Positions 40,398 to 58,012 of a stretch of DNA of 64,000 nucleotides are shown here, in pieces; position 1 is the stretch's first letter, and the number at the start of each line of letters is the position of its first letter. The stretch comes from a virus. Position numbers and translations under genes: made by a program. The notes under the pieces are model-generated. The model was not told where the DNA came from. It did not search any database and saw nothing but the letters and a program-made list of their open reading frames with translations. The stretch is from positions 1 through 64,000 of IMG/VR virus record IMGVR_UViG_3300032073_000022; one strand, 5' to 3'.

Positions 40398-40805
40398 TTA
40401 CTCCATAAACATCTCAAAACCCGTTCCTAATATCATTACTATATCATGAGTGGCTTTATTGGGTGATCCAGAACTACCTGTACCTGAAGGTAAGTCACAG
40501 GGAGAGTCGTCGCCAGTACCAGCGGTATCATAAAGATACTTAATTGTTAATTGGGTTTGTCCTGCTCCCATTTCCATTCCACCACCGCCACCGCCACCAA
40601 CTGCGGTCACAACGTATACGTATGTAGATAGAACAGTACTGCTACCACCGTCGCCAGCTCCTCTTTTTTCAACATAGACATAATGGCCAATTTTAGCGTT
40701 GGCGTACTCATCATCATAAGTGATGGTATAGCTTGGTCCAGAGCCACTACAGGAGTCAACCCCTGCATTGTCGTGAATTACAACATGATTTCTTAGGTTA
40801 GCCAT
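40398..40805 (-). CDS. Small Gly-rich structural protein after the giant fibre (135 aa)
   Basis: The start shares a base with the fibre stop (TAATG). The protein has MANLRNHVVIHDNAGVDSC, a strand-rich first half (YTITYDDEYANAKIGHYVYVE), a glycine run (seven Gly) and Ser/Gly/Asp-rich second half. It could be a fibre chaperone, an accessory tip or a small structural protein, judging only by its place and coupling to the fibre gene. No motif is known to me. Confidence 0.5.
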   Translation of the reverse strand: MANLRNHVVIHDNAGVDSCSGSGPSYTITYDDEYANAKIGHYVYVEKRGAGDGGSSTVLSTYVYVVTAVGGGGGGGMEMGAGQTQLTIKYLYDTAGTGDDSPCDLPSGTGSSGSPNKATHDIVMILGTGFEMFME

Positions 40806-43800
40806 TAGTTTGGTATATCTTGTCCTATGATGAAGCCATCAAATTTAGTGTCGTTTGCACTACCTCCGGTCGCCGTGCATAAAAATCCATATACATCTTT
40901 ATGTCCCTGATGGGAAGTTCCGTCGTTTCCAGTCATTGTTGGTGAAATATTTCCAGCCCATTTTAATTCAGCGGCGGTACTTCCATCTATTCTCACTGTT
41001 GACCAACTTATTCCGTGTCCAGTACCGCTAGTGGCTTGGATAAATCGAATAACAAACTTTTGCCCTATTGTGGCATTTTCAAACTGTACGGCTGTGATAT
41101 CGGCACCCAAGAGTATGTTGAAATAATTACCTTTGCTTAGGTCTATCTGCAATGTAGCGTCTTCTGTTGTGGTTCCGGTGGCTGGAACTGGCTGATTAAC
41201 ATATGCTCCTTGTACTAAGTGGAGTCTGTTTTCGCTTTCATCCCATTCTACATAAGAGCCGCTTCTAGCACCAAAGAACTTAACATCTTTACCTGTGTCA
41301 TCAACACCAACCGTAAGGGTTCCATCTAACTGAACATTACCATCAATGTCTACAGCATCTAGATTTGTTGTGCCGTCTACATCTAAATCACCGTCAACAT
41401 CAGTATTTCCTGTAACAGTTATGCTATCGACATAAGCATCTTTCCATCTTTTTGCACTAGTACCAAGATCTACATCGCTGTCGGCTTCTGGCCCAAACAC
41501 GTTGTCAATTAAGCTAACTTGGTCAACGTTATTTGCTCTAAGTATAATCTTATTGTTTGTCGTAGCAAAGTCAATTAAGTTCTCAGTGCCTCTACCCATC
41601 TTGAGGGAGGCGTTGTATACAGAAGTAATTGTAGTTTGTGCGGCAGTAATTGCTATGTCGTTAGCGTTCGCTGTAATGCCATCGCCACCAACAACGTTTA
41701 GTGTTGCGTCTCCAGTAGTGGCTCCGCCTGTTAAACCGTCACCAGCAACTACAGATGTGATATCTCCTCCGCCTCCTCCACCAGAAGCATCCTCCCATTG
41801 AGGTGCGTTTCCAGCATCGTTGACAGTTAAGACTTGACCATCACTACCTATTCCCAATCTAACGTAGTCAGTACCATTGTAGTACATTATATCGCCCGCA
41901 GCATCAGAGCCAAGGGCTATCTTTGCACCAGTAATTCCATTGTCTGCAATATAAGCACTGGCAATTGCAGTGCCATTCCAAACTCCAGTGTCGATAGTGC
42001 CTACCGTAGTGATTGCTAACCCGTTGATATCAGCTTTAGTTTGGTCTGCTGTAGCATTGGCTTCAATAGCATCTAATTTGCTTTCTTGAGCGTCTGTCAT
42101 AAACCTTTTATTTGAGGCGTCTGACATATTGGCTGTTGTGAAGTTTGGAGAAGAGCCAGATATTACAGACTGATCTAAAGCTTTCACGTCTGCTATGCTC
42201 GCTAGCTCACTATCCATTAATGCTCCAGCCGCTGTCACGTTAGTAGTGTCTGTCACATCTGCACTAGCCTCTATAGCATCTAGCTTGGTTTTGTCCCCAT
42301 CTGCAAATGCTCCTTCAGAAGGTTTGACTTGTAGAGTAGAAATGGTGACCCCTTTGACGCCAGCTAGGTCAGTCAGCTCACTGTCCATCAAGGCTCCAGC
42401 CGCAGTAACATTGGTGGCATCCGTAACATCCGCACCGTCTTCAACATTCAGTGCTGTTCGTACTTCGGTTGCTGTTAAACCCTCTACTTCTGTACCATTG
42501 ATTCTAAGGAAGTCATTGTCTGCTACTGCATCGTTAGCTGTTAGAACGTTTCCGTCTGAAATACCCTTTGTTAAGGCTTTTACAAATGCGAGATTTGTTA
42601 CCTCTGAATCCATCAAGGCTCCAGCAGCAGTTACATTGGTCGCATCAGTCACATCGGCATTTGCTTCAATACCATCTAGTTTGGTATGATCAGCGTTTGT
42701 AAAATCATTAGTTGTTAACCCACCGTCACCTACGGAATAAGTAGTATTAGTATCAACAGCCGAACCATTAAATTTAAGGGTTCCGCCGTCGTTGTAGAGC
42801 TTGTTTGTAGTAGAGGAAGGAGCATTATCTGGTAAGACTACACCACCATCTGGACCAACAGCTACGACCTCGGTGCCATCACTTTTTTGGAAAGTTTGCA
42901 TGTTAGCAGATTGAGAAGCGTGAGCCTTTACTTTAATCCCAATATCGGAGGCTGTATGCATATTTACATCCATAGCGGCGGAGTAAACATCTGCCCATCT
43001 TAGCGTACTTGCTCCAAGGGATCTTCCATTGTCGTTGTTTGGGTAAAGGGCGGCGTGTACTCTCCAAGTATTGGAACTTGCGTGGAACTGGAGCCTATCT
43101 GTTCCTCCGTTTTGGAACATTATGTCGCGGGCTGTTCCGTCTCCAGCGGTGGTATTTATTACAAATTCATTAGCTTTCCAACCCATCTTCAGGGTTTCAT
43201 TGTCTGTGTTAGCCGAGTTTATAAAATGAATGTTAGGAGGAGTGTCATTATCTCCACTGTTCATTATAATGTTAGAAAGACTAGTTAACTGGCCTCTATT
43301 TAGATCTCCAGCGAAAAACGATAAACCGGAGGGGACGCCAGTAGACAGGGCTACATCGTTAGCGTTGACAGTTATGCCATTACCAGCTCCGACAGCAAAA
43401 CTTCTGTTGGAAGAAATGTCTCCACCACCTGTTAATCCATCACCAGCAGTTAGGGTTACAGAAGTGTGGTCTATGTGTTCATTAGCTACAAAATTACTAG
43501 CCGTGTCATGGTCAACAACAAAGTCCATGTCACCGTTAGTATCATCATAGGTTATTGCGATCCCTGTCTTTGTTCCCCCGGTTGCCACTAGCGGGCCTGC
43601 AATATCCTGAACTTCTTCTGTTGTAAGGGTAGCTGTAATGAAAGCAGAAGACGAGTTATCGTAGTTAGATAGGTCGTTATCAACCGTCAAGTCGATTGCA
43701 CCATCGCCAGCGTCATCGTAAGCTGCTGTAATGAGGGTGTGACTACCATTAGTGACAAATTGAGCACCGACGATATCTTGGGCTTCTTCTGATGTTAAAC

Positions 43801-46800
43801 CACCTCCACCACCACCAGCGGTCCAAGGTACGTTTACAACCAGCTTGTCACTGCTATCCACCTGTACGGCGTAAGTTCTAGACGCGGTAGTTGTGCGACT
43901 CTCAGCGGCTGTTGTTTGAACAGTATAGTCTACTAAGTTTGCATTAAATTTAGTACCTTGTAATATAACTCCGCTATCACTAGTGTAGGTAGTATTGGTA
44001 TCGCTATTAACAGCAGAACCGTTAAACTTCAGTGTACCCCCGTCATTATAAAGTCTATTAGTGGTAGAAGAGGGTACATGATTTGCTAACTCAACGCCAC
44101 TAGCAGTTAATCCACTAGCAAGTATTTGGCCTAGTTTTGCTCTGTCGTCGGTAACGGCAGATCCATGAACAGCAATTATACCAGCAGAATATCTTTTAAG
44201 GTTAGTATCTGTGCCGTCTTGTGCTTCACCAACAGAGCTGCTAGACCAACCAATATAACTGGCATTACCAACTTGAAGGCGGTCATCGCCTATGATAAGT
44301 CTATTTCTTCCACCGGCACAAAATGCTATTTGTTGATCGCTAAACTTTTCGTAAAATCCAACACGTCTATTGCTAGAGCCTGTAAAACAAAGAGTTGGGG
44401 CGGAAGTGCCTCCTCCTCCGGGTAAGAATATTTGACCACTAGCAGAAGTGATATCACCACTGGTTAAAATATGTCCTTGGCTAGATATCTCAGCCTTAAT
44501 CGTACCGGCACTATCTTGCCACTCGGTTAGATTCGCAGACTGAGCAGCTTTCCCTTTTATAACTACACCTTTATAAGCAGCAGCCAACGGATATGCGGTA
44601 AATCCCCTGTTAAAGTGAGGTACAGAGCTTCCAATCTCACCATCGGGACTCTGCCTTGAATCAAAGACCTCAGTAACTCCAACATATAATTTAGTTCTAT
44701 AATAACTTTTTAGTTCTTGTATATTACCATCTACATGTAAACTATGATCTCCACCATTTGTTGTCATGGTAATTCCACCACAGTCGGTAACTGCACTGCT
44801 TGTAGAACCGTCAAGTGTTATACCTCTGGTGGCACTAGCGTATATAAACCCATCACCACTAGTTAGAACCCCGTCATCTCCGAAAAACGCAACACCAGAT
44901 GGACCGCCAACCCCGCTAGCTGAATTGGCGAGTATGTCGGCGGCGTGATTAGCTCCGCTAGCAGCAAGACGAATTATGTCATTGGCGTGATTAACACCAC
45001 TAGCAGATTCAGTTCTAAGCTCTGTTGTCAGATTGGTGACGGATGTGTTGGTGGCTGTACCGCTGGCAGCGTTGCGGATAATATCAGCGGCATGGTTTGT
45101 ACCGCTAGTAGCAAGATGGGTAATGTCGGCGGCGTGGTTCGTTCCACTGGCGGCTAACCTGATTATATCGTTAGCATGATTTACACCACTTGCAGACTCT
45201 GTCCTTAACTCAGTAGTTAAATTTGTCACAGAAGTGTTGGTGGCTGTACCGCTGGCAGCGTTGCGGATAATATCAGCAGCATGATTGGTTCCACTGGCGG
45301 CTAATCTGATTATGTCATTAGCGTGGTTTACACCGCTAGCCGACTCTGTTCTCAACTCAGTGGTTAAATTTGTTACAGACGTATTGGTTGCAGTTCCACT
45401 CGCTGAATTCCTAATAATATCAGCGGCGTGGTTTGTGCCGCTAGTAGCGAGACGAATAATGTCGGCGGCGTGATTCGTTCCGCTGGCGGCAAGCCGGATT
45501 ATGTCATTAGCATGGTTGACACCGCTAGCTGACTCTGTTCTTAGTTCGGCGGTTAAATTAGTTATAGAAGTGTTGGTTGCGGTGCCGCTCGCAGAATTTC
45601 TGATAATGTCCGCAGCGTGATTGGTTCCGCTTGAAGCTAGTCTTGTGATATCATTAGCATTATTAAGACCGCTAGCAGAATTTGTGCGGATTTCAGTAGT
45701 GTTTGCAGTTATTAAATTAGTAAGTGTAGTGGAGATGTTTGCATCGTCATTAATAGCAGCCGCTAGCTCATTTAGCGTGTTCAGTGTAGCGGGAGCACTA
45801 TCTACTAAGGCTGCTACTTTAATATCTGTATAAGATTGATTGTATCCAGAGACTGCATTGCCAGAACCAAAGTCTAGGTGAAACTTATTATTCTGTAGAA
45901 TTAAACCGCTTCCCGCTGTATATGTTGTGCCTCCGCCGCCGCCGCCAGCAGTGGTTTGAGTGGTACCATCATTAAACCTTAAACCGCTAAGACCAATGTT
46001 AATACCGCTAGCTGAAAGTATTGAACTAGTGTAGCTTGGGACATTGGAGTCTGTGTAATGCTCTGCCCAACCACTAACAGCAGCAATATAATCTTTATTG
46101 GATTGGCCGGAGGCGTTGAGTTTATTAGTGTTTTGATTTATATTAATTTGTAAGGTAGATGTTTTGTTATCTATTCTATCTTGAAGATAACCGCTAACAT
46201 TATCAATTTTAGTTCTATTAAAATTACCAGAACTCATAAATGTGTAGTGGTCATTTGTTATACTTGTTGAGTTTGCAGATATCAGTGCTAAGTTTGCATT
46301 ACCTGAAGCTATTGCTGTAGTAGCTCCCGTGTGATCGTCAGAGGCCAAGTGACTAGCAACATGACCAATTACCCAACCACTAATAGAGCTATCACCCTGT
46401 GAAGATTTTTGTGTTGATATATCCAAAGCCCAGCCGCTAATGGATGCCGAATAGTCTTTATTAGCATTTCCTGAAGCGTTTAAAGCAGATAAGTTGGAGG
46501 TTATTTGTGGCTGTAGATAGCCACTAACTGCTGTAGCGTCTGCTATGCCATCAATAACAGACTGGAAGTACCCACTAACTGCTGTTCCAGATAGATCGCT
46601 ATCAACGTAATATTTTGCCCATCCACTAATATCTACGCCGCTCGCAGAATTACTTCTAATGTCGTCTAATACGTCTGTTCCAGCTAAGACTAAAGATCCA
46701 TCGCTCTTTATTTTTGCCAGAACTGTGTCTGAGCTATTTCTCCACTCTTGTATGTTAGCGGCTTGTGCTGGTGCAGACTTTAGTATTAATGCTGGGTAAG

Positions 46801-47578
46801 CGGCAGTTTTTCCAATTATGGAAGTACCGGTTGTGCTAGCTGCACTAAAAATAACATTAGATTTATTGGTGACTTGAAAGCCAGCACCGTGAGTGAGATT
46901 AAGGCTGTTTTGACTATTGGCGTATAAACCAACATTTCCATCAGCACCAAAAACGTAAGCGTATGTGGGTGCAGAAGTAGGGCTGCTTGGCCCAGATTTT
47001 AAGCCAAGCTTCCACTCTGGAGAAGAAGAACCATCGGTATGGAGTGAAACAGTTTTATTAATACCGTCATCAAGGTACGCTTGAAAGAAATTACCGGCAT
47101 TTGGTCTACTCAGTGTTAGCATCCCACTGCTGATCATACCGCTAGAGGATGTAATAAAGTTAGCCCCTGCAAAGCTAGATGCTGTTAGATTATTTGTTGT
47201 TATGTCGCCATTGGTTGTTGAAAGGCTACCGCTGCCTAAAATTATATCACCGCTTATGACAACGTTACCGTCAAGATTTTTGAATACGCTTTTTTCCGAC
47301 GACAGTGCTATAAAAACAAAGGAGACGCCACTCAAAGATATTTTGGAGCCGCCTGAAGAGCTAGATATAACGGTATCTCTAGAAAGCGAACCAGCGGAGT
47401 AAGTACCAATACCCACTTCCCATCTGGTATCATTTTCTATCACGTAATAAGTCTGGTTACCTTCTCCAACGGCGGAGCCAAACGAAACAAAGCCACCAAT
47501 AGCACCACCTAGAGTTAAGGTGCCGGTACCCGCTGTGATTGTTGTTTCTTTGACTCTATCTGATAGTATTAACGACAT
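40805..47578 (-). CDS. Giant tail fibre protein (2257 aa)
   Basis: The N-terminal 100 residues (LSDRVKETTITAGTGTLTLGGA..., RWEVGIGTYSAGSLSRDTV) form the attachment-type domain frequent in phage fibres, shared with the 1952-residue fibre. A shaft of SG-rich helical/strand repeats follows; residues about 630-885 have 14-residue units (ASGVNHANDIIRLA). Later there are several units of the marine-phage type (KLDAIEASADVTD, NVTAAGALMDSEL) and DVDGDLDVDGTTNLD runs, then a GWxSxR-free beta C-terminal part. Ribosome site GAGAGA. It directly follows the glycosyltransferase gene. Trimeric fibre by analogy; receptor unknown. Confidence 0.85.
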   Translation of the reverse strand: MSLILSDRVKETTITAGTGTLTLGGAIGGFVSFGSAVGEGNQTYYVIENDTRWEVGIGTYSAGSLSRDTVISSSSGGSKISLSGVSFVFIALSSEKSVFKNLDGNVVISGDIILGSGSLSTTNGDITTNNLTASSFAGANFITSSSGMISSGMLTLSRPNAGNFFQAYLDDGINKTVSLHTDGSSSPEWKLGLKSGPSSPTSAPTYAYVFGADGNVGLYANSQNSLNLTHGAGFQVTNKSNVIFSAASTTGTSIIGKTAAYPALILKSAPAQAANIQEWRNSSDTVLAKIKSDGSLVLAGTDVLDDIRSNSASGVDISGWAKYYVDSDLSGTAVSGYFQSVIDGIADATAVSGYLQPQITSNLSALNASGNANKDYSASISGWALDISTQKSSQGDSSISGWVIGHVASHLASDDHTGATTAIASGNANLALISANSTSITNDHYTFMSSGNFNRTKIDNVSGYLQDRIDNKTSTLQININQNTNKLNASGQSNKDYIAAVSGWAEHYTDSNVPSYTSSILSASGINIGLSGLRFNDGTTQTTAGGGGGGTTYTAGSGLILQNNKFHLDFGSGNAVSGYNQSYTDIKVAALVDSAPATLNTLNELAAAINDDANISTTLTNLITANTTEIRTNSASGLNNANDITRLASSGTNHAADIIRNSASGTATNTSITNLTAELRTESASGVNHANDIIRLAASGTNHAADIIRLATSGTNHAADIIRNSASGTATNTSVTNLTTELRTESASGVNHANDIIRLAASGTNHAADIIRNAASGTATNTSVTNLTTELRTESASGVNHANDIIRLAASGTNHAADITHLATSGTNHAADIIRNAASGTATNTSVTNLTTELRTESASGVNHANDIIRLAASGANHAADILANSASGVGGPSGVAFFGDDGVLTSGDGFIYASATRGITLDGSTSSAVTDCGGITMTTNGGDHSLHVDGNIQELKSYYRTKLYVGVTEVFDSRQSPDGEIGSSVPHFNRGFTAYPLAAAYKGVVIKGKAAQSANLTEWQDSAGTIKAEISSQGHILTSGDITSASGQIFLPGGGGTSAPTLCFTGSSNRRVGFYEKFSDQQIAFCAGGRNRLIIGDDRLQVGNASYIGWSSSSVGEAQDGTDTNLKRYSAGIIAVHGSAVTDDRAKLGQILASGLTASGVELANHVPSSTTNRLYNDGGTLKFNGSAVNSDTNTTYTSDSGVILQGTKFNANLVDYTVQTTAAESRTTTASRTYAVQVDSSDKLVVNVPWTAGGGGGGLTSEEAQDIVGAQFVTNGSHTLITAAYDDAGDGAIDLTVDNDLSNYDNSSSAFITATLTTEEVQDIAGPLVATGGTKTGIAITYDDTNGDMDFVVDHDTASNFVANEHIDHTSVTLTAGDGLTGGGDISSNRSFAVGAGNGITVNANDVALSTGVPSGLSFFAGDLNRGQLTSLSNIIMNSGDNDTPPNIHFINSANTDNETLKMGWKANEFVINTTAGDGTARDIMFQNGGTDRLQFHASSNTWRVHAALYPNNDNGRSLGASTLRWADVYSAAMDVNMHTASDIGIKVKAHASQSANMQTFQKSDGTEVVAVGPDGGVVLPDNAPSSTTNKLYNDGGTLKFNGSAVDTNTTYSVGDGGLTTNDFTNADHTKLDGIEANADVTDATNVTAAGALMDSEVTNLAFVKALTKGISDGNVLTANDAVADNDFLRINGTEVEGLTATEVRTALNVEDGADVTDATNVTAAGALMDSELTDLAGVKGVTISTLQVKPSEGAFADGDKTKLDAIEASADVTDTTNVTAAGALMDSELASIADVKALDQSVISGSSPNFTTANMSDASNKRFMTDAQESKLDAIEANATADQTKADINGLAITTVGTIDTGVWNGTAIASAYIADNGITGAKIALGSDAAGDIMYYNGTDYVRLGIGSDGQVLTVNDAGNAPQWEDASGGGGGGDITSVVAGDGLTGGATTGDATLNVVGGDGITANANDIAITAAQTTITSVYNASLKMGRGTENLIDFATTNNKIILRANNVDQVSLIDNVFGPEADSDVDLGTSAKRWKDAYVDSITVTGNTDVDGDLDVDGTTNLDAVDIDGNVQLDGTLTVGVDDTGKDVKFFGARSGSYVEWDESENRLHLVQGAYVNQPVPATGTTTEDATLQIDLSKGNYFNILLGADITAVQFENATIGQKFVIRFIQATSGTGHGISWSTVRIDGSTAAELKWAGNISPTMTGNDGTSHQGHKDVYGFLCTATGGSANDTKFDGFIIGQDIPN
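44920..45690 (-). repeat. 14-residue ASGxNHAxDIIR repeats within the giant fibre
   Basis: Higher-order units of ASGVNHANDIIRLA, ASGTNHAADIIR and ASGTATNTSVTNLTTELRTE recur about four times. Codons differ between copies although the residues are nearly identical, showing selection on the protein rather than only recent duplication. Confidence 0.8.
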
Positions 47579-47589
47579 AATATCTCTCT

Positions 47590-48750
47590 TTATTTACATC
47601 TTTTTTTACAGCATTTCCCAGTTTTTGAGTTAGCCTTCGACTGAAGTTGTTTTAATTTTAATTTTAATTGATCTATCTCACTTAGCACTTCGGGGTCTAT
47701 AGTTGATTCACCCCTGTATATACTCCTACATTCATCTACGATTCGATTGTAATCATCAAGGTCGAGATTTTGCTCTTCCACAAAATGTTTTTTGATTGGA
47801 GACAAATCCATGTTAAGCTCTAAGAACTCTAATACGTAATTTCTAACTTTGTTACCTAGTGTTAAGGGGTAAGAAACTCCATCCGGTCTATCAAACCTAT
47901 GAAGCCATCTTAAAAATGGAAGATAAATAACTTTTCTGTCATTCATTCTATACTTTTCATGTATGTAGCATTCTTCTCCACCAAAACCCTCGGCATATTC
48001 ATTAAATCCAAGCCAAGCATTTTTTCTAGTAAAAAAGCAGCCTAACCCTTGAGCAAAAACCTCAAATGGTTTTTCACTTGCATTTCTGCCGACTAAGCTG
48101 TAACCTTGGCTATTAAGTGTCTGATTTATAAGTTTCCATTCCACATCTTTAGGAAACTCTCTATTACAATATACACATTTATCAATACTTTCCCCTGTAT
48201 CCAACTTAGAAAAGGCGGCTTTGCCATTTACGTTTTTTATTGAAAAATTAAATGACTCACAAACACACTGCCAAGCGTTGGCCCATTGACCCCACATGCC
48301 ACTACCCCACGTATCTTTAAAGTGAGTGGAGATAGCAAGGCAATTATCGTGGACTAAAGGGCCGCAAAATAAGTCGTTGGAATCTGCATTGTATTCCATG
48401 TAGGTAAATAATCTGTCTAGAGTGTCAACAACTGGACAGAGTAGTACATGACAATCCAGAACTAAAACAAAGTTGGTTCTAGCTTCCTCTATTACTTTAT
48501 TTCTAGTGGCCGAAGTACCTTTTTTATCAGTAAAATCTACTACTCTTAATGAGTTTATTTTTTTCTCTAGAGATTTTACCGATTTTCCATGTTTACTATT
48601 TGGATTATTCTCTACTACTAAAAACTCTATCTTTTGCAATAGATCTTGTCTATTGTTAAAAGTAAGCTCTTTTATAATATCTTGAATTGTAAAATACACA
48701 CCATTAAAATCATCGTGATGTGCCATTCCTATTGTTAGTGTTTGTTCCAT
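47590..48750 (-). CDS. GT-A fold glycosyltransferase
   Basis: A 386-residue protein with a GT2/GT27-like layout: LTIGMAHHDDFNGVYFTI start, FLVVENNPNS, a GTSATRNKVIEEA segment, then VLVLDCHVLL with a DxH metal-type motif at 99-101, GFGGEECYIHEKYR at 255-268 and WLHRF at 282-286. These resemble polypeptide GalNAc-transferase-like catalytic regions. CVYC near 192 and a final CCKKRCK may bind metal. Strong AGGAG site. It sits between the poly-Thr/Cys-rich protein and a giant SG-rich fibre, which makes virion protein glycosylation an attractive inference; it may also act on the host surface. Confidence 0.75.
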   Translation of the reverse strand: MEQTLTIGMAHHDDFNGVYFTIQDIIKELTFNNRQDLLQKIEFLVVENNPNSKHGKSVKSLEKKINSLRVVDFTDKKGTSATRNKVIEEARTNFVLVLDCHVLLCPVVDTLDRLFTYMEYNADSNDLFCGPLVHDNCLAISTHFKDTWGSGMWGQWANAWQCVCESFNFSIKNVNGKAAFSKLDTGESIDKCVYCNREFPKDVEWKLINQTLNSQGYSLVGRNASEKPFEVFAQGLGCFFTRKNAWLGFNEYAEGFGGEECYIHEKYRMNDRKVIYLPFLRWLHRFDRPDGVSYPLTLGNKVRNYVLEFLELNMDLSPIKKHFVEEQNLDLDDYNRIVDECRSIYRGESTIDPEVLSEIDQLKLKLKQLQSKANSKTGKCCKKRCK

Positions 48751-48773: not shown

Positions 48774-51317
48774 TTAATATGGTCCACTTGGATCTCCACC
48801 TCCGGGGCTATCTCCATCGCCTTCGCCATCCGGACTTGATCCTCCTCCGGGGTCGTCGCCATCTCCGTCGCCGTCGCCATCCGGACTTGATCCTCCGCCG
48901 GGGTCGTCGCCATCTCCGTCGCCATCGCTAGGGCTTTCATCGGGGTCGTCGCCATCTCCGTCGCCGCCGCCGGTTGGGTCATCGTCAGGAACGTCAGGGT
49001 TGTCAGGATCGTCACCCGGTCCATCTGGACCATCTGGATCATCTGGATCATCTGGATCATCTGGATCTTCGGTGGTCGTAGTAGTGCAATTTTCTGGGCG
49101 GTCTTCTGGGTTTTTTTCCCACCACGGTTGTTGCTCCCATTCTGCACAACAGTCAATACCAGTGCTATCAGTGTCTGCCCCCGATGCCGTCTCAGAATTA
49201 GTTTTACAAGAAGCTGGGTCCATTGGGTAGAAATTACGTCCGAAACGAGCAATTGATTGGGTGGGGCAGTTCCCGAGACAGTCTATTCCCGTAGTATGTC
49301 CTAAGTAGGGGTGCGTATCCCCGCATTGACTATGGTTTACCCCAGCGTTTGCGGCTTCGCAATTGTGTTCTCTCATAGGATAACCGGGATTTGGGCCTCC
49401 ACCGGGATTAGCTAACCATCTATCTGTACACACGAGGTATACTTTTAAAACGTTGCTCCCAACCGTTTCGTCGAACTCACAACGCTTCTCTGTGAAGCAA
49501 CATATACCAACAGGACCATCTGTAGTCGTTGTTGTTGAAGTGCATGGTTCTGGTGGGTTAGCATGACTCTGACCTTCTTTTCTGCCTCCCGATTTTCTAT
49601 CATCGAACCATTGACCACAGCAAGAAATTTCCTCAATCAGGTCTTCCAGATCATCACCTTCGCTTCCCGGACAAACTTTAAATTTTCCTTCGAGTGGTTT
49701 ACCTGCTCTTGTGTATATACCCTCGTTCACACCGAGGAAATCGCACTGAGCTTGGGTTACCCAATCATGGCACGTTAATTCCTCAGTGTGCGGATGCATA
49801 TAGCAACACATACCAACTGGCTCTTCCGTGGTTGATGTTGTTGTTCCATCGCAAGCCCCCAACGTTCCGTTGAAGTCTTCACAGTAAACACAGCATCCCG
49901 GAGTGCCGTCAATTATAAGAGTTGATCCGTTAACACAGCAAGTAGCAGTTCCGCATTCACCGACTGTTCCATCTGCGGCTATACAGTCGCTATCACCGAA
50001 GCAAGTTTGACATGGCCTCTCTGTTGTGGTTGTCGTACCTTCTAGCGTTGTGGTTGTTGTTGGTTCCAATGTGGTTGTGGTTGTGGTTGTTGGTTCATCA
50101 CCACAGCTTCCATTGACTGTTGCCCCAATCGAATACGCCCAGCAAAAGTCATTATGCCTAATGGTTTCGCCCCATGCCGTAATGTGCTCACATGGACACT
50201 CACTTTTACAAGGAGGAGATGCTACCCAAGTCTTGCCAACAAAGCCAGAAATACAAGTCAAAACACAGTCACTGCCACAGGGTGACGGCGTTGTGGTTGT
50301 TGTAGTGGTAGGGTCGCTACAAGGATCTACCCCTTGGCAACCATTTGGTAAAAATCTTCCCCCTAAATTATTGCATTGATTCTCGGTGGTCGGGAAACAA
50401 AAGGAACCAAAGCAACATCCGCCTAGCGGATTGTCCGTGGTTGTTGTGGTTGTTGTTGGTTCCAATGTTGTTGTTGTTGTTGTTGGAACGGGACACTCAT
50501 CGCAAAAACTGCGGTCTAGACCTGAGTAGTTTGTCTTTCCGGGAAATTGGTTTTCACAGCAATTAGCCATGCGAGATGTTGAATTTGGAGGTCCACATAT
50601 GGTTTCAGGTGCATTCGCCGCACAACCTAAAAACTCTGTGTTGCCTGAAGAATTGTCTGCATAACAGCAAATTACACCATACCTACAGTTATGAAAAACA
50701 AACCCGTTAACAAAGTAAAGATGATTGCCATCTAAGGATAGATCATAAAGTATAGTGTCAGGACTGTAATATCCTAAACTAATTTGGTCAACCTTTACTT
50801 CTCCGTCCTCACTGTATATGATATCTCCAACGGAGAGATTTTCAACAAAATTAATCTCAGGATACAGATTTCTAGATAGTTCAACATCAAAAGATTTGAA
50901 GCCTTCTTTCGTGAGAACGGGATGGTCATAACTAAAAAACATTGGCTTGTTGTTAATAGAAGCCATCTTCCTGTCACCAAGATGGACTTTCTCTATTTCA
51001 ACAACCTCGTTGACTAGACCATTTATAGATCTGACTTTTTCGCCAATAGAGATCTCTGATATTTTTTTATGACTACCATTCTCCATCAAGACTAATGAGT
51101 TAGGGAGAAAGCATGAGGGAGGGAGGTCTAGGCAGTTGTTTCGTTGGGCACATGTCAGAGTAGAAAATGAACCGTCTAATCTTACTTCACAATCATTAAC
51201 TGTAACATTGTCTTCGCACACTTTATGTGTTAAAGATTGAGCTGGATCAATATAGCAACAAGACCCCACTGGAGGTGGTGGTGGCGTAACACCGTCACAT
51301 TGACAGCAATTGGTCAT
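48774..51317 (-). CDS. Cys/Thr-rich modular virion protein with mini-intein (847 aa precursor)
   Basis: A strong AAGGAGG site precedes the ATG. The precursor has 68 N-terminal residues rich in Cys and Pro, a 142-residue intein (69-210), then Cys-rich modules with a recurrent P[VL]GxCC[YF] start (for example PVGSCCY, PLGGCCF, PVGMCCY, PVGICCF) separated by six poly-Thr linkers (TTTTTTLEPTTTT). The C-terminal 110 residues carry DPD repeats and DGDGDGDD/GGGSSPDG repeats that resemble calcium-binding acidic loops. Splicing would leave 705 residues. Mucin-like linkers and paired cysteines suggest an extracellular, disulfide-bonded appendage. Function is unknown. Confidence 0.7.
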   Translation of the reverse strand: MTNCCQCDGVTPPPPPVGSCCYIDPAQSLTHKVCEDNVTVNDCEVRLDGSFSTLTCAQRNNCLDLPPSCFLPNSLVLMENGSHKKISEISIGEKVRSINGLVNEVVEIEKVHLGDRKMASINNKPMFFSYDHPVLTKEGFKSFDVELSRNLYPEINFVENLSVGDIIYSEDGEVKVDQISLGYYSPDTILYDLSLDGNHLYFVNGFVFHNCRYGVICCYADNSSGNTEFLGCAANAPETICGPPNSTSRMANCCENQFPGKTNYSGLDRSFCDECPVPTTTTTTLEPTTTTTTTDNPLGGCCFGSFCFPTTENQCNNLGGRFLPNGCQGVDPCSDPTTTTTTTPSPCGSDCVLTCISGFVGKTWVASPPCKSECPCEHITAWGETIRHNDFCWAYSIGATVNGSCGDEPTTTTTTTLEPTTTTTLEGTTTTTERPCQTCFGDSDCIAADGTVGECGTATCCVNGSTLIIDGTPGCCVYCEDFNGTLGACDGTTTSTTEEPVGMCCYMHPHTEELTCHDWVTQAQCDFLGVNEGIYTRAGKPLEGKFKVCPGSEGDDLEDLIEEISCCGQWFDDRKSGGRKEGQSHANPPEPCTSTTTTTDGPVGICCFTEKRCEFDETVGSNVLKVYLVCTDRWLANPGGGPNPGYPMREHNCEAANAGVNHSQCGDTHPYLGHTTGIDCLGNCPTQSIARFGRNFYPMDPASCKTNSETASGADTDSTGIDCCAEWEQQPWWEKNPEDRPENCTTTTTEDPDDPDDPDDPDGPDGPGDDPDNPDVPDDDPTGGGDGDGDDPDESPSDGDGDGDDPGGGSSPDGDGDGDGDDPGGGSSPDGEGDGDSPGGGDPSGPY
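48790..49070 (-). repeat. Acidic Asp/Gly/Pro repeat tract at the C-terminus of the Cys/Thr-rich protein
   Basis: The triplet-based repeats encode DPD units (a 9-base repeat five times near 49026-49065) and longer DGDGDGDDPGGGSSPDG units. This tract is more GC-rich than its surroundings, and its regularity also opens a spurious overlapping frame. Confidence 0.7.
50688..51113 (-). other. Mini-intein (142 residues, no homing endonuclease)
   Basis: The intein begins with Cys at residue 69 (CFLPNSLVLMENG), has the block B-like FFSYDHPVLTKEGF, the block F-like ILYDLSLDGNHLYFVNG and block G FVFHN, followed by Cys+1 (CRYG). All terminal splicing residues (Cys1, His-Asn, Cys+1) are present. At about 142 residues it is near the minimum for a Hint domain and has no endonuclease. 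Activity is inferred from intact residues. Confidence 0.85.
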
Positions 51318-51327
51318 AAAAACCTCC

Positions 51328-54153
51328 TTAGCTACCGTCGCCAGAGCAACTTATGTATATAGGTCTGTGTTCACCGTTTACTAAATTAGTTACAACAAAA
51401 GCTGTTCCACCAACAGCACCGGGGCCATGAATATCCATTCTAGTGTCTCTATTTACTACTAGTATTCTTCTATCTGTACCAAACCCTTTTTCATATGTAC
51501 GGGTTACCATCCAGCCGCTAGTTGGATTAGTGTAGCTTGTTGGAGCATAAATGTATTCTTCCATAAAGCCTTCGTTATTTCCAAACCAAGCATCGCAAGT
51601 ATCATTTGGCTCAGAGTCGTGATTTACAGATACAACCCTATTAACGAAATGACCAGAATTATTTACTCTGGCAATATTAATGGTTGATGGATTTATAGTA
51701 GTATCGGCAACCACAAAACTTTGTAAGTCAACACCGTGTTCATGTCCGGAATGATTATACGTGCTCGTAGTACTTTTTCTAACCTCAAGGATTCCGGTTG
51801 GAGTGTGATGTGCTACGCCAACAGAAATCTTGGCGGCACTAGTATCCCCAGCAATAGTATTTTGTATATTAAGTCTGTTAGATAGGTCACCACGGGTATA
51901 AAGAATTCTATCATTGTCGTCTAAGCCAGCAACGATCTCTATGTTTCTAGAACCACCTTCGTTCTCGGAAATTTCACCCTCAAGTGCGTGAGCACCGATA
52001 CCAATAGAGTTTGCATTTGTACTGTTTTGTCCAGCACCGGGACCAATAAATATTGACTTTATAGAGTTGTCTGCGTTTTTACCAGCACCATTACCTATAA
52101 AGATAGCGTTGTCAGTATTTGAAGCCGTATGTCCAGCCTGAAGACCCATGTATATACAAGCGGTGTCAACACTAAGACTTGGGTTTGATGTTGTCGAATC
52201 TTTACCAGCCTCTGTGCCTATGAAAATACCGTGTTTCCAACCAGTAGCACTAGAGGCTACGTCGCATCCTATGAAAACAGAACTTTCATTCTTAGCCGTA
52301 TTGACACTTGAGAAGTTATCAGGATTTGTAAATACAGCGTTACATTTATCAGCGAAAGTAGCTGTTCCGCTGGTGATGTAGGCACCCATAGCAGTCAAGC
52401 TCATTTTGCCAAGTGCGTTACTGTTGCTTAAATCGACGGCGACGAAAGACTCATCTGGATTTACTTCCGCTACCTGATTTTCAGCTAGAGGTACACCGTC
52501 ATAATCTAGACCGTAGTAATGAATACCATTTAGTATGGTTCGTTTGAGACCGGAAACACTAAACGGTCTTACTTCAAGAGGAGAAGTGTTTAGGGTTGTT
52601 CCGTCTGCAAATCTAAAATCACCTAAAAGTCTAAGATCGCCACTGATCGAAACTGTAGGTCTCTTAAATGTAGGATTTGCAAAACTTGGCGTTACATTTA
52701 TAGTCCCGCTTGGGTCAAAATCCATCAGTGTCTGTTGATAGTTTGAATTGTTCCTAAGTCCAAACCTCATGGACATCATCGACTTTGCTTGGTTGCCAGC
52801 TACGGAGTTAGTGACAAGGTCTTGACTACCAAATGTTACTATATTTCTATTGTTCTCTTCTACAATGCCAACGTTATAATCAAAGTTGCCCTGCTTAACT
52901 TTAAACTTTGCTGGATTGGATGGGGAGGACATTAAGGTTAAGTGTGAGCCTGCACCCTTCATTTTGCCTAATAAAAACGGGTCTGCATCAGTACCAATCG
53001 CTAGAGTGTTATCTGAAGGAACTTCGTCGGTAAAAAGCTTGTTACCTATAATGATTGCGTCGTGTATGTCAAAGTCGGGGTCGTCTAGTGGATCGTTAGT
53101 TTTTAGATTATCATAACCTATAACAATATTACCATCACTTCCATCTAATTTTTGGAAGGAGTTAGAGCCTATTATTGTATTGCCTTTAGGTCTAACACAA
53201 CCGCTACCAGCTTGAAAACCTATAATCGTGTTGTCAATTTCACTGGTGGTACCAGCCATGATAAGATCTATGCCATAGCCATACAGTGTGTTTCTTTTAA
53301 CAGTAGAGCTTGAGGTTCTACTTCTAGGTGTATACCAACCTCCATAGGCGGCACCATATTGATCACCAAAGATATGACCACCTATAGAGTCACTATCTGA
53401 AGCTGTGATGTTATGTTCATTTCCTCCATCATCAAGGAAATATAATGATTGAGTTTGATTTGGTTTATCGTAAGGCTTTACGTATATCTTACCAAAGTTA
53501 TTAGATGTAGCTGGGGTGATAGGTTGCTCTCTAAGAGCTACTGTCCCGCTGTGACTAACTCCCGAACTAGAAACGGCAAGAACAGTGTGTGTAATTGATT
53601 CGGAATAGCCGTGAGAATGGTTATGCGAGATATCATTATCAATTTTAGACGTACCTATAATGGTTACTCTGTCTTCCGCTCGATATCTAAAGAAAGAGCT
53701 AAAAAAGCCGTGACCAGTGCTGTCATTTATAATGGGTTCGTCGGAGGAATCTCTATGGGTTTCAGCGAGAAGAAAATCTCCCCTTAATCCTTCGTATCCA
53801 TCCCTTATTATACTAAACCTTCTATCTTCAGAACCCGCCGTTTTTAACTCAATGAAAGCACGATCTTCAGTTCTTACGATGCCGCCGAGACTATTGTGTC
53901 TGGCGTTGAATACGTTTTCTACTCTAAGTCTCGCTCGACGATCTGGCCAGCCGCCGGTGGCTCCACCACCAGAACCCATGACATGAAGGGCAATCTCTGG
54001 TAGATATGCTGTATCTGAAGGTTGAGCAAAATTAACGATACCAACGTGCCCACTAGGACTGCTTATAACGAGAGATTCATGTCTCATATCCGCTGATTGA
54101 TTGTCTGGATCAACGTGTATTGATAATCTGTTTGTATTAGGTCTATTTGACAT
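51328..54153 (-). CDS. Fibre-type structural protein with beta-roll repeats (941 aa)
   Basis: Ribosome site AGAGGAA. N-terminal strands (NRLSIHVDPDNQSADMRHESL) are followed by a beta-rich segment. Two clusters of 'NTIIGxQAG/VFIGxxAG' units (about residues 305-375 and 620-730) form the same beta-roll pattern as in the 1952- and 555-residue proteins. The C-terminal part has INIARVNNSGHFVNRVV and RTYEKGFGTDRRILVVNRDT. It seems to be a shaft-and-tip fibre or collar protein. It lies in a row of appendage genes with short gaps. Receptor unknown. Confidence 0.7.
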   Translation of the reverse strand: MSNRPNTNRLSIHVDPDNQSADMRHESLVISSPSGHVGIVNFAQPSDTAYLPEIALHVMGSGGGATGGWPDRRARLRVENVFNARHNSLGGIVRTEDRAFIELKTAGSEDRRFSIIRDGYEGLRGDFLLAETHRDSSDEPIINDSTGHGFFSSFFRYRAEDRVTIIGTSKIDNDISHNHSHGYSESITHTVLAVSSSGVSHSGTVALREQPITPATSNNFGKIYVKPYDKPNQTQSLYFLDDGGNEHNITASDSDSIGGHIFGDQYGAAYGGWYTPRSRTSSSTVKRNTLYGYGIDLIMAGTTSEIDNTIIGFQAGSGCVRPKGNTIIGSNSFQKLDGSDGNIVIGYDNLKTNDPLDDPDFDIHDAIIIGNKLFTDEVPSDNTLAIGTDADPFLLGKMKGAGSHLTLMSSPSNPAKFKVKQGNFDYNVGIVEENNRNIVTFGSQDLVTNSVAGNQAKSMMSMRFGLRNNSNYQQTLMDFDPSGTINVTPSFANPTFKRPTVSISGDLRLLGDFRFADGTTLNTSPLEVRPFSVSGLKRTILNGIHYYGLDYDGVPLAENQVAEVNPDESFVAVDLSNSNALGKMSLTAMGAYITSGTATFADKCNAVFTNPDNFSSVNTAKNESSVFIGCDVASSATGWKHGIFIGTEAGKDSTTSNPSLSVDTACIYMGLQAGHTASNTDNAIFIGNGAGKNADNSIKSIFIGPGAGQNSTNANSIGIGAHALEGEISENEGGSRNIEIVAGLDDNDRILYTRGDLSNRLNIQNTIAGDTSAAKISVGVAHHTPTGILEVRKSTTSTYNHSGHEHGVDLQSFVVADTTINPSTINIARVNNSGHFVNRVVSVNHDSEPNDTCDAWFGNNEGFMEEYIYAPTSYTNPTSGWMVTRTYEKGFGTDRRILVVNRDTRMDIHGPGAVGGTAFVVTNLVNGEHRPIYISCSGDGS

Positions 54154-54164
54154 TATGTTCCTCT

Positions 54165-55832
54165 TTAATTTCCAAACTCGTCATGAAAGACAATGCTGAA
54201 GCCACGTTTGTCATTAGCTTTGTTGATTCTACTAGCAAAATTCTGAATAACCTTAACTCCTGAGTCAACCGTTGCGTATGAAACGCTGTAGTCGTTTCCA
54301 GAAGGGTTTCCTGCTACAAGATGGGTTCCAGAATCTGCTATAAAGCTTACATTGGACTTGTCTGTAAGGGAATAATTATGTTCCAAGTGAGACTCAGATC
54401 CCACAGTCATCCTAGTGCCTGAAGGAGTAGTGTGCTGCCCCAGTTTCACAGACTCCATGAAAATCCCGTAGCAACCACTTTGTTTAACTAGTGCGACACT
54501 TTCGTCAAACAAAACCCTATCTGTCTGTAGGTGGCATCCACTAGCTATTTCCATACTTATATTGGAAACCCAGCGTGTTCTTGAGAATTTAGAGTCATAC
54601 TCTAGGCAGGTTAGCGTTGGATCGGAATTTCTAAATATAAATTCATAATCATGTTGATAATCATAACCGCTTGCGTGGAGAACAAGACCCCCTCCATCGA
54701 CAAGCTCGTCACTCATGTATCCACAAACATTGTCATTATGGAAGCCTGCGTTTTCACCTCCAGCAGACTCGCAAACACCACTAGTCGCTAAGTGTAAAGT
54801 TTTGCAATCGTACAAACACTCATTAATTGTATTGTATTGAAGGTCGTTTATTATGGCGTTACCAGCTACTAGTAAGTCATTAAAATAACCATCCCATAAT
54901 AGTTTATCGGGGTGAGATCCGGGGCCAGTTCCATCTCCAGACCAGCCTATTGAGTAGATAGCATTTTCTTTGGGAACAATGCTTCCATCAATGGTCATTA
55001 AGGCCTGTTTAGGTCCAGCACCAAGAACGCCAGACATCTCGCTTGTTCCAACCCCAATAAAGGTTTTATTGTGCTTACCGCCAGAAAAATAGATAGACTC
55101 GTTTACAGAGTTCCAAGGCGTGTGCGAATTTCCAACATTGAACAATCCGCTGTGAGATGGTGTTATATCACCGGAAACTTGGAGAGTGGCATGACTGTGC
55201 AACTGTTGTATACCAACAGCTAACCTTCTGCTTTGTAGGTCTCCATAAAGAAGAGGTATTGCACCAGAGGTATCAGTATAATCATTACAGTCATAACCAC
55301 TATCAATTGGGTCTATACCTAAGAAAAACTTAAAGTCATGATCTTTAGGGATGTGACTACCAGCACCATGACCTATAGCTATGTTGAAGGAGCCAGTTCT
55401 TAGACTTTGTAGAGAAAGTGAACCAATGGAAGTATTTCCAGATCCAACAGTTATTCCAGCAGAACTATTAAAACCCGCCGCAGTATTGTAAGTACCGTTT
55501 AGATTACACCCAAGAGAGTGTGAGCCTAATGCAGTATTTTGAGACCCTTGAAAGTTAGCCCCAAGTGCATAGTAACCAAATGCAGAGTTATCCACACTGG
55601 TTCTATCTGCGTACTTAAGTTTTGATAGGGCTTTATCACCAGCTAATACACTCCTAGTTTGAGGAGTAGCAAAATTGGTGCTTACTATATTGTGTTCAGA
55701 AGTTAATAAATGCACAGAATCCGCTAGGTCTCTAAGAGAGATTCTTAGATCTAGCGGAGAAATTAATTGCTGTGAATTATCTTTTAATAGAGAGTTAATC
55801 TTCTCTATATACTCAGATTTTGATAGTATCAT
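54165..55832 (-). CDS. Fibre/collar-type structural protein (555 aa)
   Basis: The N-terminus (MILSKSEYIEKINSLLKDNSQQLISPLDLRISLRDLADSV) is the helical 'DN...IS..DLR...DLADS' domain also seen at the start of the 347-residue protein. Residues about 80-160 hold NTALGSHSLG / NTAAGFNSSAG / NIAIGHGAG beta-roll repeats. The rest is beta-rich with several Cys and SG pairs (SGCHLQ, SGCYGIF). Ribosome site weak (AGG); gap of 14 bases from the previous gene, so coupling is likely. Virion appendage; exact place unknown. Confidence 0.65.
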   Translation of the reverse strand: MILSKSEYIEKINSLLKDNSQQLISPLDLRISLRDLADSVHLLTSEHNIVSTNFATPQTRSVLAGDKALSKLKYADRTSVDNSAFGYYALGANFQGSQNTALGSHSLGCNLNGTYNTAAGFNSSAGITVGSGNTSIGSLSLQSLRTGSFNIAIGHGAGSHIPKDHDFKFFLGIDPIDSGYDCNDYTDTSGAIPLLYGDLQSRRLAVGIQQLHSHATLQVSGDITPSHSGLFNVGNSHTPWNSVNESIYFSGGKHNKTFIGVGTSEMSGVLGAGPKQALMTIDGSIVPKENAIYSIGWSGDGTGPGSHPDKLLWDGYFNDLLVAGNAIINDLQYNTINECLYDCKTLHLATSGVCESAGGENAGFHNDNVCGYMSDELVDGGGLVLHASGYDYQHDYEFIFRNSDPTLTCLEYDSKFSRTRWVSNISMEIASGCHLQTDRVLFDESVALVKQSGCYGIFMESVKLGQHTTPSGTRMTVGSESHLEHNYSLTDKSNVSFIADSGTHLVAGNPSGNDYSVSYATVDSGVKVIQNFASRINKANDKRGFSIVFHDEFGN

Positions 55833-55846
55833 AACTGGCCTGTAAA

Positions 55847-56344
55847 CTAATTAAAGCGTATTTGTAACGTGGAAGTATCAAATTTTACAGTATCACCCAG
55901 ATAAATAATTCTTGGATTATCTAGCTGTGCGTACATTAAAAGATTTCCAGTCCCATACTCTCCTGAGTCTACTACGGCTACACCTGAAACCCAACCCCAA
56001 TCAACTAGGGCTGCACTACCTTCACCCTCATCAAAGTTGAATGAACCTGCATTTTTTATTAATCCACTTCCAGCGTTGTGATCGTCTAGGTTGTAATCCC
56101 AGATTTTATTGCCTTTAGAGGAGGGGTCTCCAAGGTTTATTCTGGCATACCCTGTTCTTGTTTGCGTTGTCCCGTCAGTCGGGGAAGTTCCAGAGGGTAA
56201 CTCTGGAATTGTGACACCAGTATCTGATTCTGATGGCACTCCGGAACATAGTGCTATTGCTATGTTTTCTGGCTTTGAAAAACTTTGACCCCTAAAAAGG
56301 TGGTGCAATAGTCCGGATTCTAAGTAATCTGATAAAGAAGCCAT
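55847..56344 (-). CDS. Small conserved phage virion protein, SDYLE...ALCS type (165 aa)
   Basis: A strong AGGAGG site and two tandem TATAAT-like boxes precede the start. MASLSDYLESGLLHHLFRGQSFSKPENIAIALCSG is the recognisable start of a small structural protein found in many phages ('..yle..ll.hlfr...y..P..i.iAL....P'). The rest is a beta-sandwich: RTGYARINL, a YNLDDHNAGSG segment, then GWVSGVAVVDS and TLQIRFN. It may sit at the fibre base or tail; the family's exact role is not settled as far as I know. Confidence 0.65.
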   Translation of the reverse strand: MASLSDYLESGLLHHLFRGQSFSKPENIAIALCSGVPSESDTGVTIPELPSGTSPTDGTTQTRTGYARINLGDPSSKGNKIWDYNLDDHNAGSGLIKNAGSFNFDEGEGSAALVDWGWVSGVAVVDSGEYGTGNLLMYAQLDNPRIIYLGDTVKFDTSTLQIRFN

Positions 56345-57499: not shown

Positions 57500-58012
57500 T
57501 CAGTCGGCTTTAGAGGCACCGGCGTTTGGAAGGTTGACGTAAACTTTTGCGTATCCGTCTGCATCCTTACGGGACATGAATCGTCCAATCGCAAGTTCTC
57601 CAGACTGAGCTACAAATTGTGTACCATTACAAATAGCACCTGCCGTTGCGTGGGACGCGTAAGCCGTGTCTCCAGCTTTTGGAGTACCGTCAATATTGCT
57701 TGTTACAACCCAACCACGAGTCATTACAGTGACTTTGCCACCCTTCTGAACTTCGTCTTTGAATTGATTAAGGTGAGTTCTAGTCAAGTCTTTGTTGACA
57801 ACGTCGTTCAACAAAATTCCAACTGGAACATCGGTTGCCGAATCCACGTTAGCGTACTTGACAAGGTTTTCACCCTGATCAAGAGCTGCACCAGAAGCAC
57901 CGGCGAGAGCTGCTGCGTCTAAAACGACAACACCACCCCTAGTTGCAGTACCAGCATTATAGAAAAAGCTGATATCTGTTGATTCTTCATATCTATCTGC
58001 TTTGAGAGCCAT
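57500..58012 (-). CDS. Capsid decoration-like protein (DUF2190 type)
   Basis: A 170-residue protein with AGGAG upstream. It contains GTATRGGVVVLDAAALAG near residue 25, VPVGILLNDVV near 62 and GGKVTVMTRGWVVT near 91, followed by AGDTAYAS and an ending with DADGYAKVYVNLPNAG. This layout fits the small beta-barrel/lambda gpD-like decoration proteins encoded between scaffold and capsid genes. A stabilising cap at capsid three-fold sites is the usual role. Function from motif style and place. Confidence 0.75.
   Translation of the reverse strand: MALKADRYEESTDISFFYNAGTATRGGVVVLDAAALAGASGAALDQGENLVKYANVDSATDVPVGILLNDVVNKDLTRTHLNQFKDEVQKGGKVTVMTRGWVVTSNIDGTPKAGDTAYASHATAGAICNGTQFVAQSGELAIGRFMSRKDADGYAKVYVNLPNAGASKAD

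What the first reader, a model, noticed from the sequence alone, without database searches (positions are those of the whole stretch)
50688..51113. Minimal intein in a Cys/Thr-rich virion appendage protein
The insert has Cys1, block B-like YDHP, penultimate His, terminal Asn and Cys+1, but no endonuclease. Phage inteins mostly sit in replication or packaging enzymes; one in a disulfide-rich structural protein is odd. The exteins carry many cysteines, so splicing might be tied to redox state or virion assembly.
Basis: partly seen in the sequence, partly recalled or inferred. Interest (0 to 1): 0.75.

Follow-up and report, generated by a model that had tools for sequence, protein, structure and literature searches.

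The report
Mini-intein in a cysteine-rich phage protein
A tailed phage carries, inside a cysteine- and threonine-rich protein that is probably displayed on its particle, a compact domain built like a self-splicing intein; related phages keep it with every key residue intact although the protein around it varies freely, which is unusual because phage inteins normally sit in conserved enzymes.

Summary
Window 50688-51113(-) encodes a 142-residue Hint domain (Cys1, SYDHP, YDL, FHN, Cys+1) inside an 847-aa Cys/Thr-rich ORF (48774-51317). AlphaFold2 plus Foldseek place it in the Hint fold, nearest BIL domains and the gp41-1 intein. I found 11 distinct relatives in IMG/VR. In all 11 proteins of this gene family (window included) Cys1, DHP, His-Asn and Cys+1 are intact; a twelfth Hint sits in a different structural-type gene and has Lys+1. 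The Hint is the best-conserved part; the C-extein is hypervariable. Seven family members lack the Hint, some nested among Hint-bearing ones. Empty sites are only approximate because flanking modules are shuffled. Best reading: a class 1 mini-intein, without endonuclease, that joins the conserved 68-residue cap to variable Cys modules, giving a 705-residue product. Splicing, particle location and redox control are inferred, not shown. It lies between inteins (catalytic residues) and BIL domains (hypervariable host protein). Hint domains in phage structural-type proteins are already annotated elsewhere, so this is a variant, not a new class. In passing: the adjacent GT2 gene is strongly linked to Thr-run proteins.

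The parts
48774..51317 (-). Host ORF, 847 aa: N-terminal cap, Hint, Cys modules joined by Thr runs, Asp/Gly/Pro-rich tail
51114..51317 (-). N-extein: conserved 68-residue cap MTNCCQCDGVTPPPPPVGSCC...PPS
   Evidence: aligned with 11 other family members with and without Hint, 16 invariant columns
50688..51113 (-). Hint (predicted class 1 mini-intein), 142 aa, Cys1 to Asn142
50484..50687 (-). First C-extein module, begins with Cys+1 (CRYGVICCY...CDECPVP), ends at the first Thr linker
   Evidence: same module follows the Hint in the relatives
48777..50483 (-). Remaining hypervariable C-extein: Cys modules, Thr linkers, acidic tail
47590..48750 (-). Neighbouring GT2-type glycosyltransferase, conserved anchor downstream
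   Evidence: PF00535 1.4e-5 above cut-off; homologues in 43 loci
51328..54153 (-). Neighbouring tail-type protein upstream, conserved in the relatives; no family match

Best explanation
The domain is a class 1 mini-intein without homing endonuclease. After translation Cys1 attacks the Ser(-1)-Cys1 bond (N-S shift), the Cys at +1 takes over the N-extein, Asn142 cyclises with help from His141, and the 68-residue cap is joined to the variable Cys/Thr-rich arm, giving a 705-residue protein (calculated 73.7 kDa) and a free 16.1 kDa intein. It is old in this phage group, inherited mostly vertically, kept active because an unspliced protein would be misbuilt, and sporadically lost or relocated when the modular gene recombines. 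Shown: the domain, its residues, fold, conservation and patchy presence. Inferred: splicing itself, particle location, and any benefit to the phage.
For: All class 1 residues are present and invariant in 11 of 11 family members at 43-63% identity, including Cys+1, which only splicing needs. Nearest solved relatives by profile include the splicing gp41-1 intein; Hint fold predicted at high confidence. The Hint is the best conserved segment: 58% mean pairwise identity, cap 52%, rest of C-extein 31% of aligned or 10% of all columns. Hint-free homologues exist, nested among Hint-bearing ones, and L048 joins cap and a C-module-like segment directly. Hint and glycosyltransferase trees show the same clades.
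Against: No biochemical evidence. No exact empty site with both flanks preserved. Host protein is hypervariable, which is typical of BIL domains, and two of the best fold matches are BIL domains. Block B has Ser instead of Thr in several members. Hint-tree support is weak on inner branches.
Confidence: 0.65

Rival explanations
1. BIL-like autocleavage domain: it mainly cuts at one or both of its ends, releasing the cap or exposing a reactive thioester, and so diversifies or cross-links a surface protein instead of restoring one polypeptide.
For: Hypervariable C-extein; top fold matches are BIL domains; in the L018 branch the same domain ends FHN|Lys, and BIL domains lacking a +1 nucleophile mostly cleave (PMC7664689).
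Against: Cys+1 is invariant in all 11 members of the window's own family; A-type BILs typically lack it (PMC5874633, PMC7664689).
Confidence: 0.2
2. Redox-gated intein: a Cys in the N-extein forms a disulfide with Cys1 and holds back splicing until the protein is reduced, or splicing must finish in the reducing cytoplasm before disulfides lock the exteins.
For: A Cys lies at -3 to -7 in all 12 Hints and the Hint itself is nearly Cys-free, 1 of 142 against 62 of 705 in the exteins, p=1.5e-4. Precedent: MoaA intein of Pyrococcus abyssi (PMC10663303).
Against: The spacing varies (-3, -4, -5, -7), and a Cys-rich extein would place one there anyway; the upstream Cys is a conserved Cys of the cap itself.
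Confidence: 0.1
3. Inactive relic of an intein kept as a spacer.
For: No endonuclease; L019 has a frameshift inside the Hint, though near-identical L018 and L020 are intact, so it is probably a sequencing error.
Against: Catalytic residues invariant across divergent Hints, and the Hint is better conserved than its host protein.
Confidence: 0.05

Closest known systems
Class 1 mini-inteins, phage type (gp41-1 intein, PDB 6qaz)
   Same: Cys1, block B His, block F Asp, His-Asn end, Cys/Ser +1 logic, Hint fold, no endonuclease; best profile match
   Different: gp41-1 and most phage inteins sit in conserved replication or packaging proteins; this one is in a hypervariable Cys/Thr-rich structural-region protein
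A-type bacterial intein-like (BIL) domains (C. thermocellum 2lwy; BUBL1 BIL2 6y75)
   Same: Hint fold, His-Asn end, endonuclease-free, host protein hypervariable; best fold matches
   Different: Cys+1 present in every member of this family, absent in typical A-type BILs; the L018 branch (Lys+1) is the exception
Hint domains annotated in phage structural-type proteins (Achromobacter phage JWF gp028; uncultured Caudovirales 'Hint domain containing protein'; Gordonia MuF-like proteins)
   Same: Same superfamily in proteins of the tail/head gene region
   Different: JWF and phage 2-1 Hints lie near the C-terminus and lack the His-Asn end; not the same family or site
Hedgehog C-terminal autoprocessing domain
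   Same: Hint fold, Cys1, similar N-terminal half
   Different: Has His-Asn and a long C-extein, no sterol-recognition region follows

Membership tests
Class 1 intein | Cys or Ser at position 1 | tested here: met
   Cys1 invariant in 12 of 12
Class 1 intein | Block B TxxH | tested here: met
   SYDH in the window; S or T at the first position, His64 invariant in 12 of 12
Class 1 intein | Block F Asp and block G His-Asn end | tested here: met
   YDL in the window, Asp in 11 of 12; His141-Asn142 invariant
Class 1 intein | Cys, Ser or Thr at +1 | tested here: met
   Cys+1 in 11 of 11 family members; Lys in the L018 branch, which is another gene
Class 1 intein | Hint fold | tested here: met
   AlphaFold2 model and Foldseek
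Class 1 intein | Intein-free allele with the same flanks | tested here: inconclusive
   Hint-free homologues exist; flanks only approximately preserved
Class 1 intein | Excision with ligation of the exteins | not testable with these tools
   needs expression or virion proteomics
A-type BIL domain | Lacks a nucleophile at +1 | tested here: not met
   Cys+1 in the window and 10 relatives
A-type BIL domain | Lies in hypervariable regions of non-conserved proteins | tested here: met
   C-extein hypervariable, though the N cap is conserved
Hedgehog Hog domain | Sterol-recognition region after the Hint | tested here: not met
   A Cys module and Thr linkers follow; no Pfam match beyond Hint-type models
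Virion appendage protein | Present in particles | not testable with these tools
   Only gene order: between head/fibre genes and a tail-fibre gene

The most novel reading that the evidence does not exclude
A phage lineage has domesticated an endonuclease-free intein as an assembly joint: splicing couples a conserved anchoring cap to interchangeable Cys/Thr-rich arms, is timed by redox state so that ligation precedes disulfide locking, and the L018 branch (Lys+1) has turned the same domain into a BIL-type cutter, giving a natural intein-to-BIL transition within one viral family.
Probability: 0.15. Interest if true: 0.8.

Novelty: new variant of a known kind. Interest (0 to 1): 0.5.

Why it matters
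Phage inteins are usually seen as parasites of conserved enzymes, while BIL domains live in variable surface proteins. This family has intein chemistry in BIL-like surroundings, with both Cys+1 and Lys+1 versions among related phages. That makes it a tractable case for asking whether an intein can be kept for a function, and how inteins and BIL domains interconvert. A short mini-intein with a single Cys that works between disulfide-rich exteins could also be a useful ligation tool.

Tried and rejected
Hedgehog-type processing: weak sequence hits but the wrong C-terminal end. Split or homing intein: no endonuclease and an uninterrupted ORF. Exact empty site: an HMM of the C module did not find it in Hint-free proteins (two searches were a faulty run); pairwise shuffle tests supported L048 and L011 but not L010 or L013. 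Cellular source: the genome-contig scan gave only one distant spirochaete hit, not followed up. Named relatives: the glycosyltransferase has no match in 50,697 phage records, so the host is unknown. A further viral scan with the N cap found no new members, so IMG/VR looks nearly exhausted for this family at that sensitivity. PHROGs had no match for the whole protein. A Cys1 disulfide 'redox trap' was considered and left as a rival because the Cys-rich background makes a nearby Cys expected. The primary redox-trap paper (Callahan 2011) is not held; a review was used instead.

Full report
What is there. The window is 64,000 of 68,882 bases of an uncultivated virus record. The long genes lie on the minus strand and include terminase large subunit (61690-63675, PF03237), a portal-like protein (59587-61620), minor capsid (57500-58012, PF23982), a podophage GP4 fibre I gp80-like protein (55847-56344, PF23140, 9e-21), a spike/structural protein (54165-55832), a tail fibre (40805-47578) and a tape measure (16185-22841). 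The ORF in question, 48774-51317(-), is 847 aa long, with Cys modules joined by runs of Thr. Its role in the particle is inferred from this setting only.

The domain. 50688-51113(-) runs exactly from Cys1 to Asn142. Single-sequence Pfam hits are real but below the curated cut-offs; NCBIfam intein_Cterm passes its cut-off. A profile of the family finds the gp41-1 intein at 1.4e-8 and the C. thermocellum BIL domain at 5e-7. The AlphaFold2 model of cap-Hint-C module has a confident Hint (most blocks pLDDT 80-97) and uncertain flanks. Foldseek ranks BUBL1 BIL2 (2.1e-10), the C. thermocellum BIL and gp41-1 first, then many inteins.

Relatives. Scans of IMG/VR with the Hint, the whole protein, the N cap and the neighbouring glycosyltransferase give 11 distinct proteins of this gene family with the Hint (window, L001, L004, L008, L009, L014, L015, L045, L066, L067, L070). 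All have Cys1, (S/T)xDHP, His-Asn, Thr or Ser at -1, and Cys at +1. In L014 the Hint sits after residue 215 instead of directly after the cap. In L045 a matrixin-like peptidase (PF00413, 1.6e-11) follows it. A twelfth, in L018/L020/L041 (frameshifted in L019), sits in a different upstream gene and ends FHN|Lys.

Presence and absence. Seven family members lack the Hint (L010, L011, L012, L013, L024, L048, L063). On the glycosyltransferase tree Hint-free L011 and L012 fall within the window/L007/L008/L009 clade, and L024 beside L015/L017. The Hint tree recovers the same clades, with weak inner support. This fits old vertical inheritance with repeated loss or module exchange. Empty sites are blurred: after the cap, Hint-free proteins have a Thr linker or another Cys module. 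L048 continues with a module resembling the post-Hint one (shuffle p=0.004 for the sum over members, 0.026 for the best pair), and L011 has one further on (0.004 and 0.006); L010 and L013 do not pass, and an HMM test was negative. For the second host gene, orthologues without the Hint (L016, L022, L028) align with the L018 trunk up to about 13 residues before the Hint.

Selection. Mean pairwise identity among nine members is 58% in the Hint and 52% in the cap; in the remaining C-extein it is 31% of aligned or 10% of all columns. So the Hint is maintained while what follows it turns over. The Hint has one Cys in 142 residues against 62 in 705 extein residues (Fisher p=1.5e-4).

Mechanism. The residues predict standard class 1 splicing to a 705-aa, 73.7 kDa product (masses calculated). 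The Lys+1 relative predicts cleavage or poor splicing, as reported for BIL domains lacking a +1 nucleophile (PMC7664689, PMC5874633). Redox gating is possible, since Cys residues lie close to both junctions and there is a precedent in MoaA (PMC10663303), but nearby Cys residues are expected from composition and nothing here tests it.

Comparison with the known. By its residues it meets the testable class 1 intein criteria; by its host protein it resembles BIL domains, whose lack of a +1 nucleophile it does not share. Inteins of mycobacteriophages are reported in terminases and non-structural genes (PMC3706429), and other phage examples read here are in terminase, polymerase, ribonucleotide reductase or dCTP deaminase (PMC3556154, PMC7156551, PMC6892783, PMC3322345, PMC6293099). 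Hint domains in phage structural-type proteins are nevertheless already present as annotation, for example Achromobacter phage JWF gp028, several uncultured Caudovirales proteins and Gordonia MuF-like proteins. I found no paper in the open library that describes this family, which does not show that none exists. Verdict: a real, probably active mini-intein in an unusual host protein; a new variant of a known kind.

Noticed in passing
window 47590-48750 and loci L007-L049: The GT2-type glycosyltransferase gene sits directly downstream of a protein with Thr or Ser runs in 34 of 37 loci (related loci included), against 17 of 186 other long ORFs on the same strand. This suggests a dedicated enzyme that glycosylates mucin-like linkers of a phage surface protein.
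   Followed up: partly
L018 8238-8660 (also L020, L041): The same Hint family sits in a different structural-type gene, with Lys at +1 and a Cys at -3; Hint-free orthologues of that gene exist.
   Followed up: partly
L045 3418-8946: An 1843-aa member carries a matrixin-like metallopeptidase domain just after the Hint (PF00413, 1.6e-11).
   Followed up: partly
L019 about 8350: Frameshift inside the Hint in a contig otherwise near-identical to L018; likely a sequencing or assembly error, not tested.
   Followed up: no
window 3588-16172: A 4194-aa ORF with FG-GAP repeats (PF14312, 2.9e-15) and no PHROGs match, in the tail gene region.
   Followed up: no
L077 5092-6789 (Ruminococcus phage NatCom_28775): Hypothetical protein with a Hint ending LVHN|A followed by a further C-terminal region; looks like a pretoxin-type arrangement, not the same family.
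   Followed up: no
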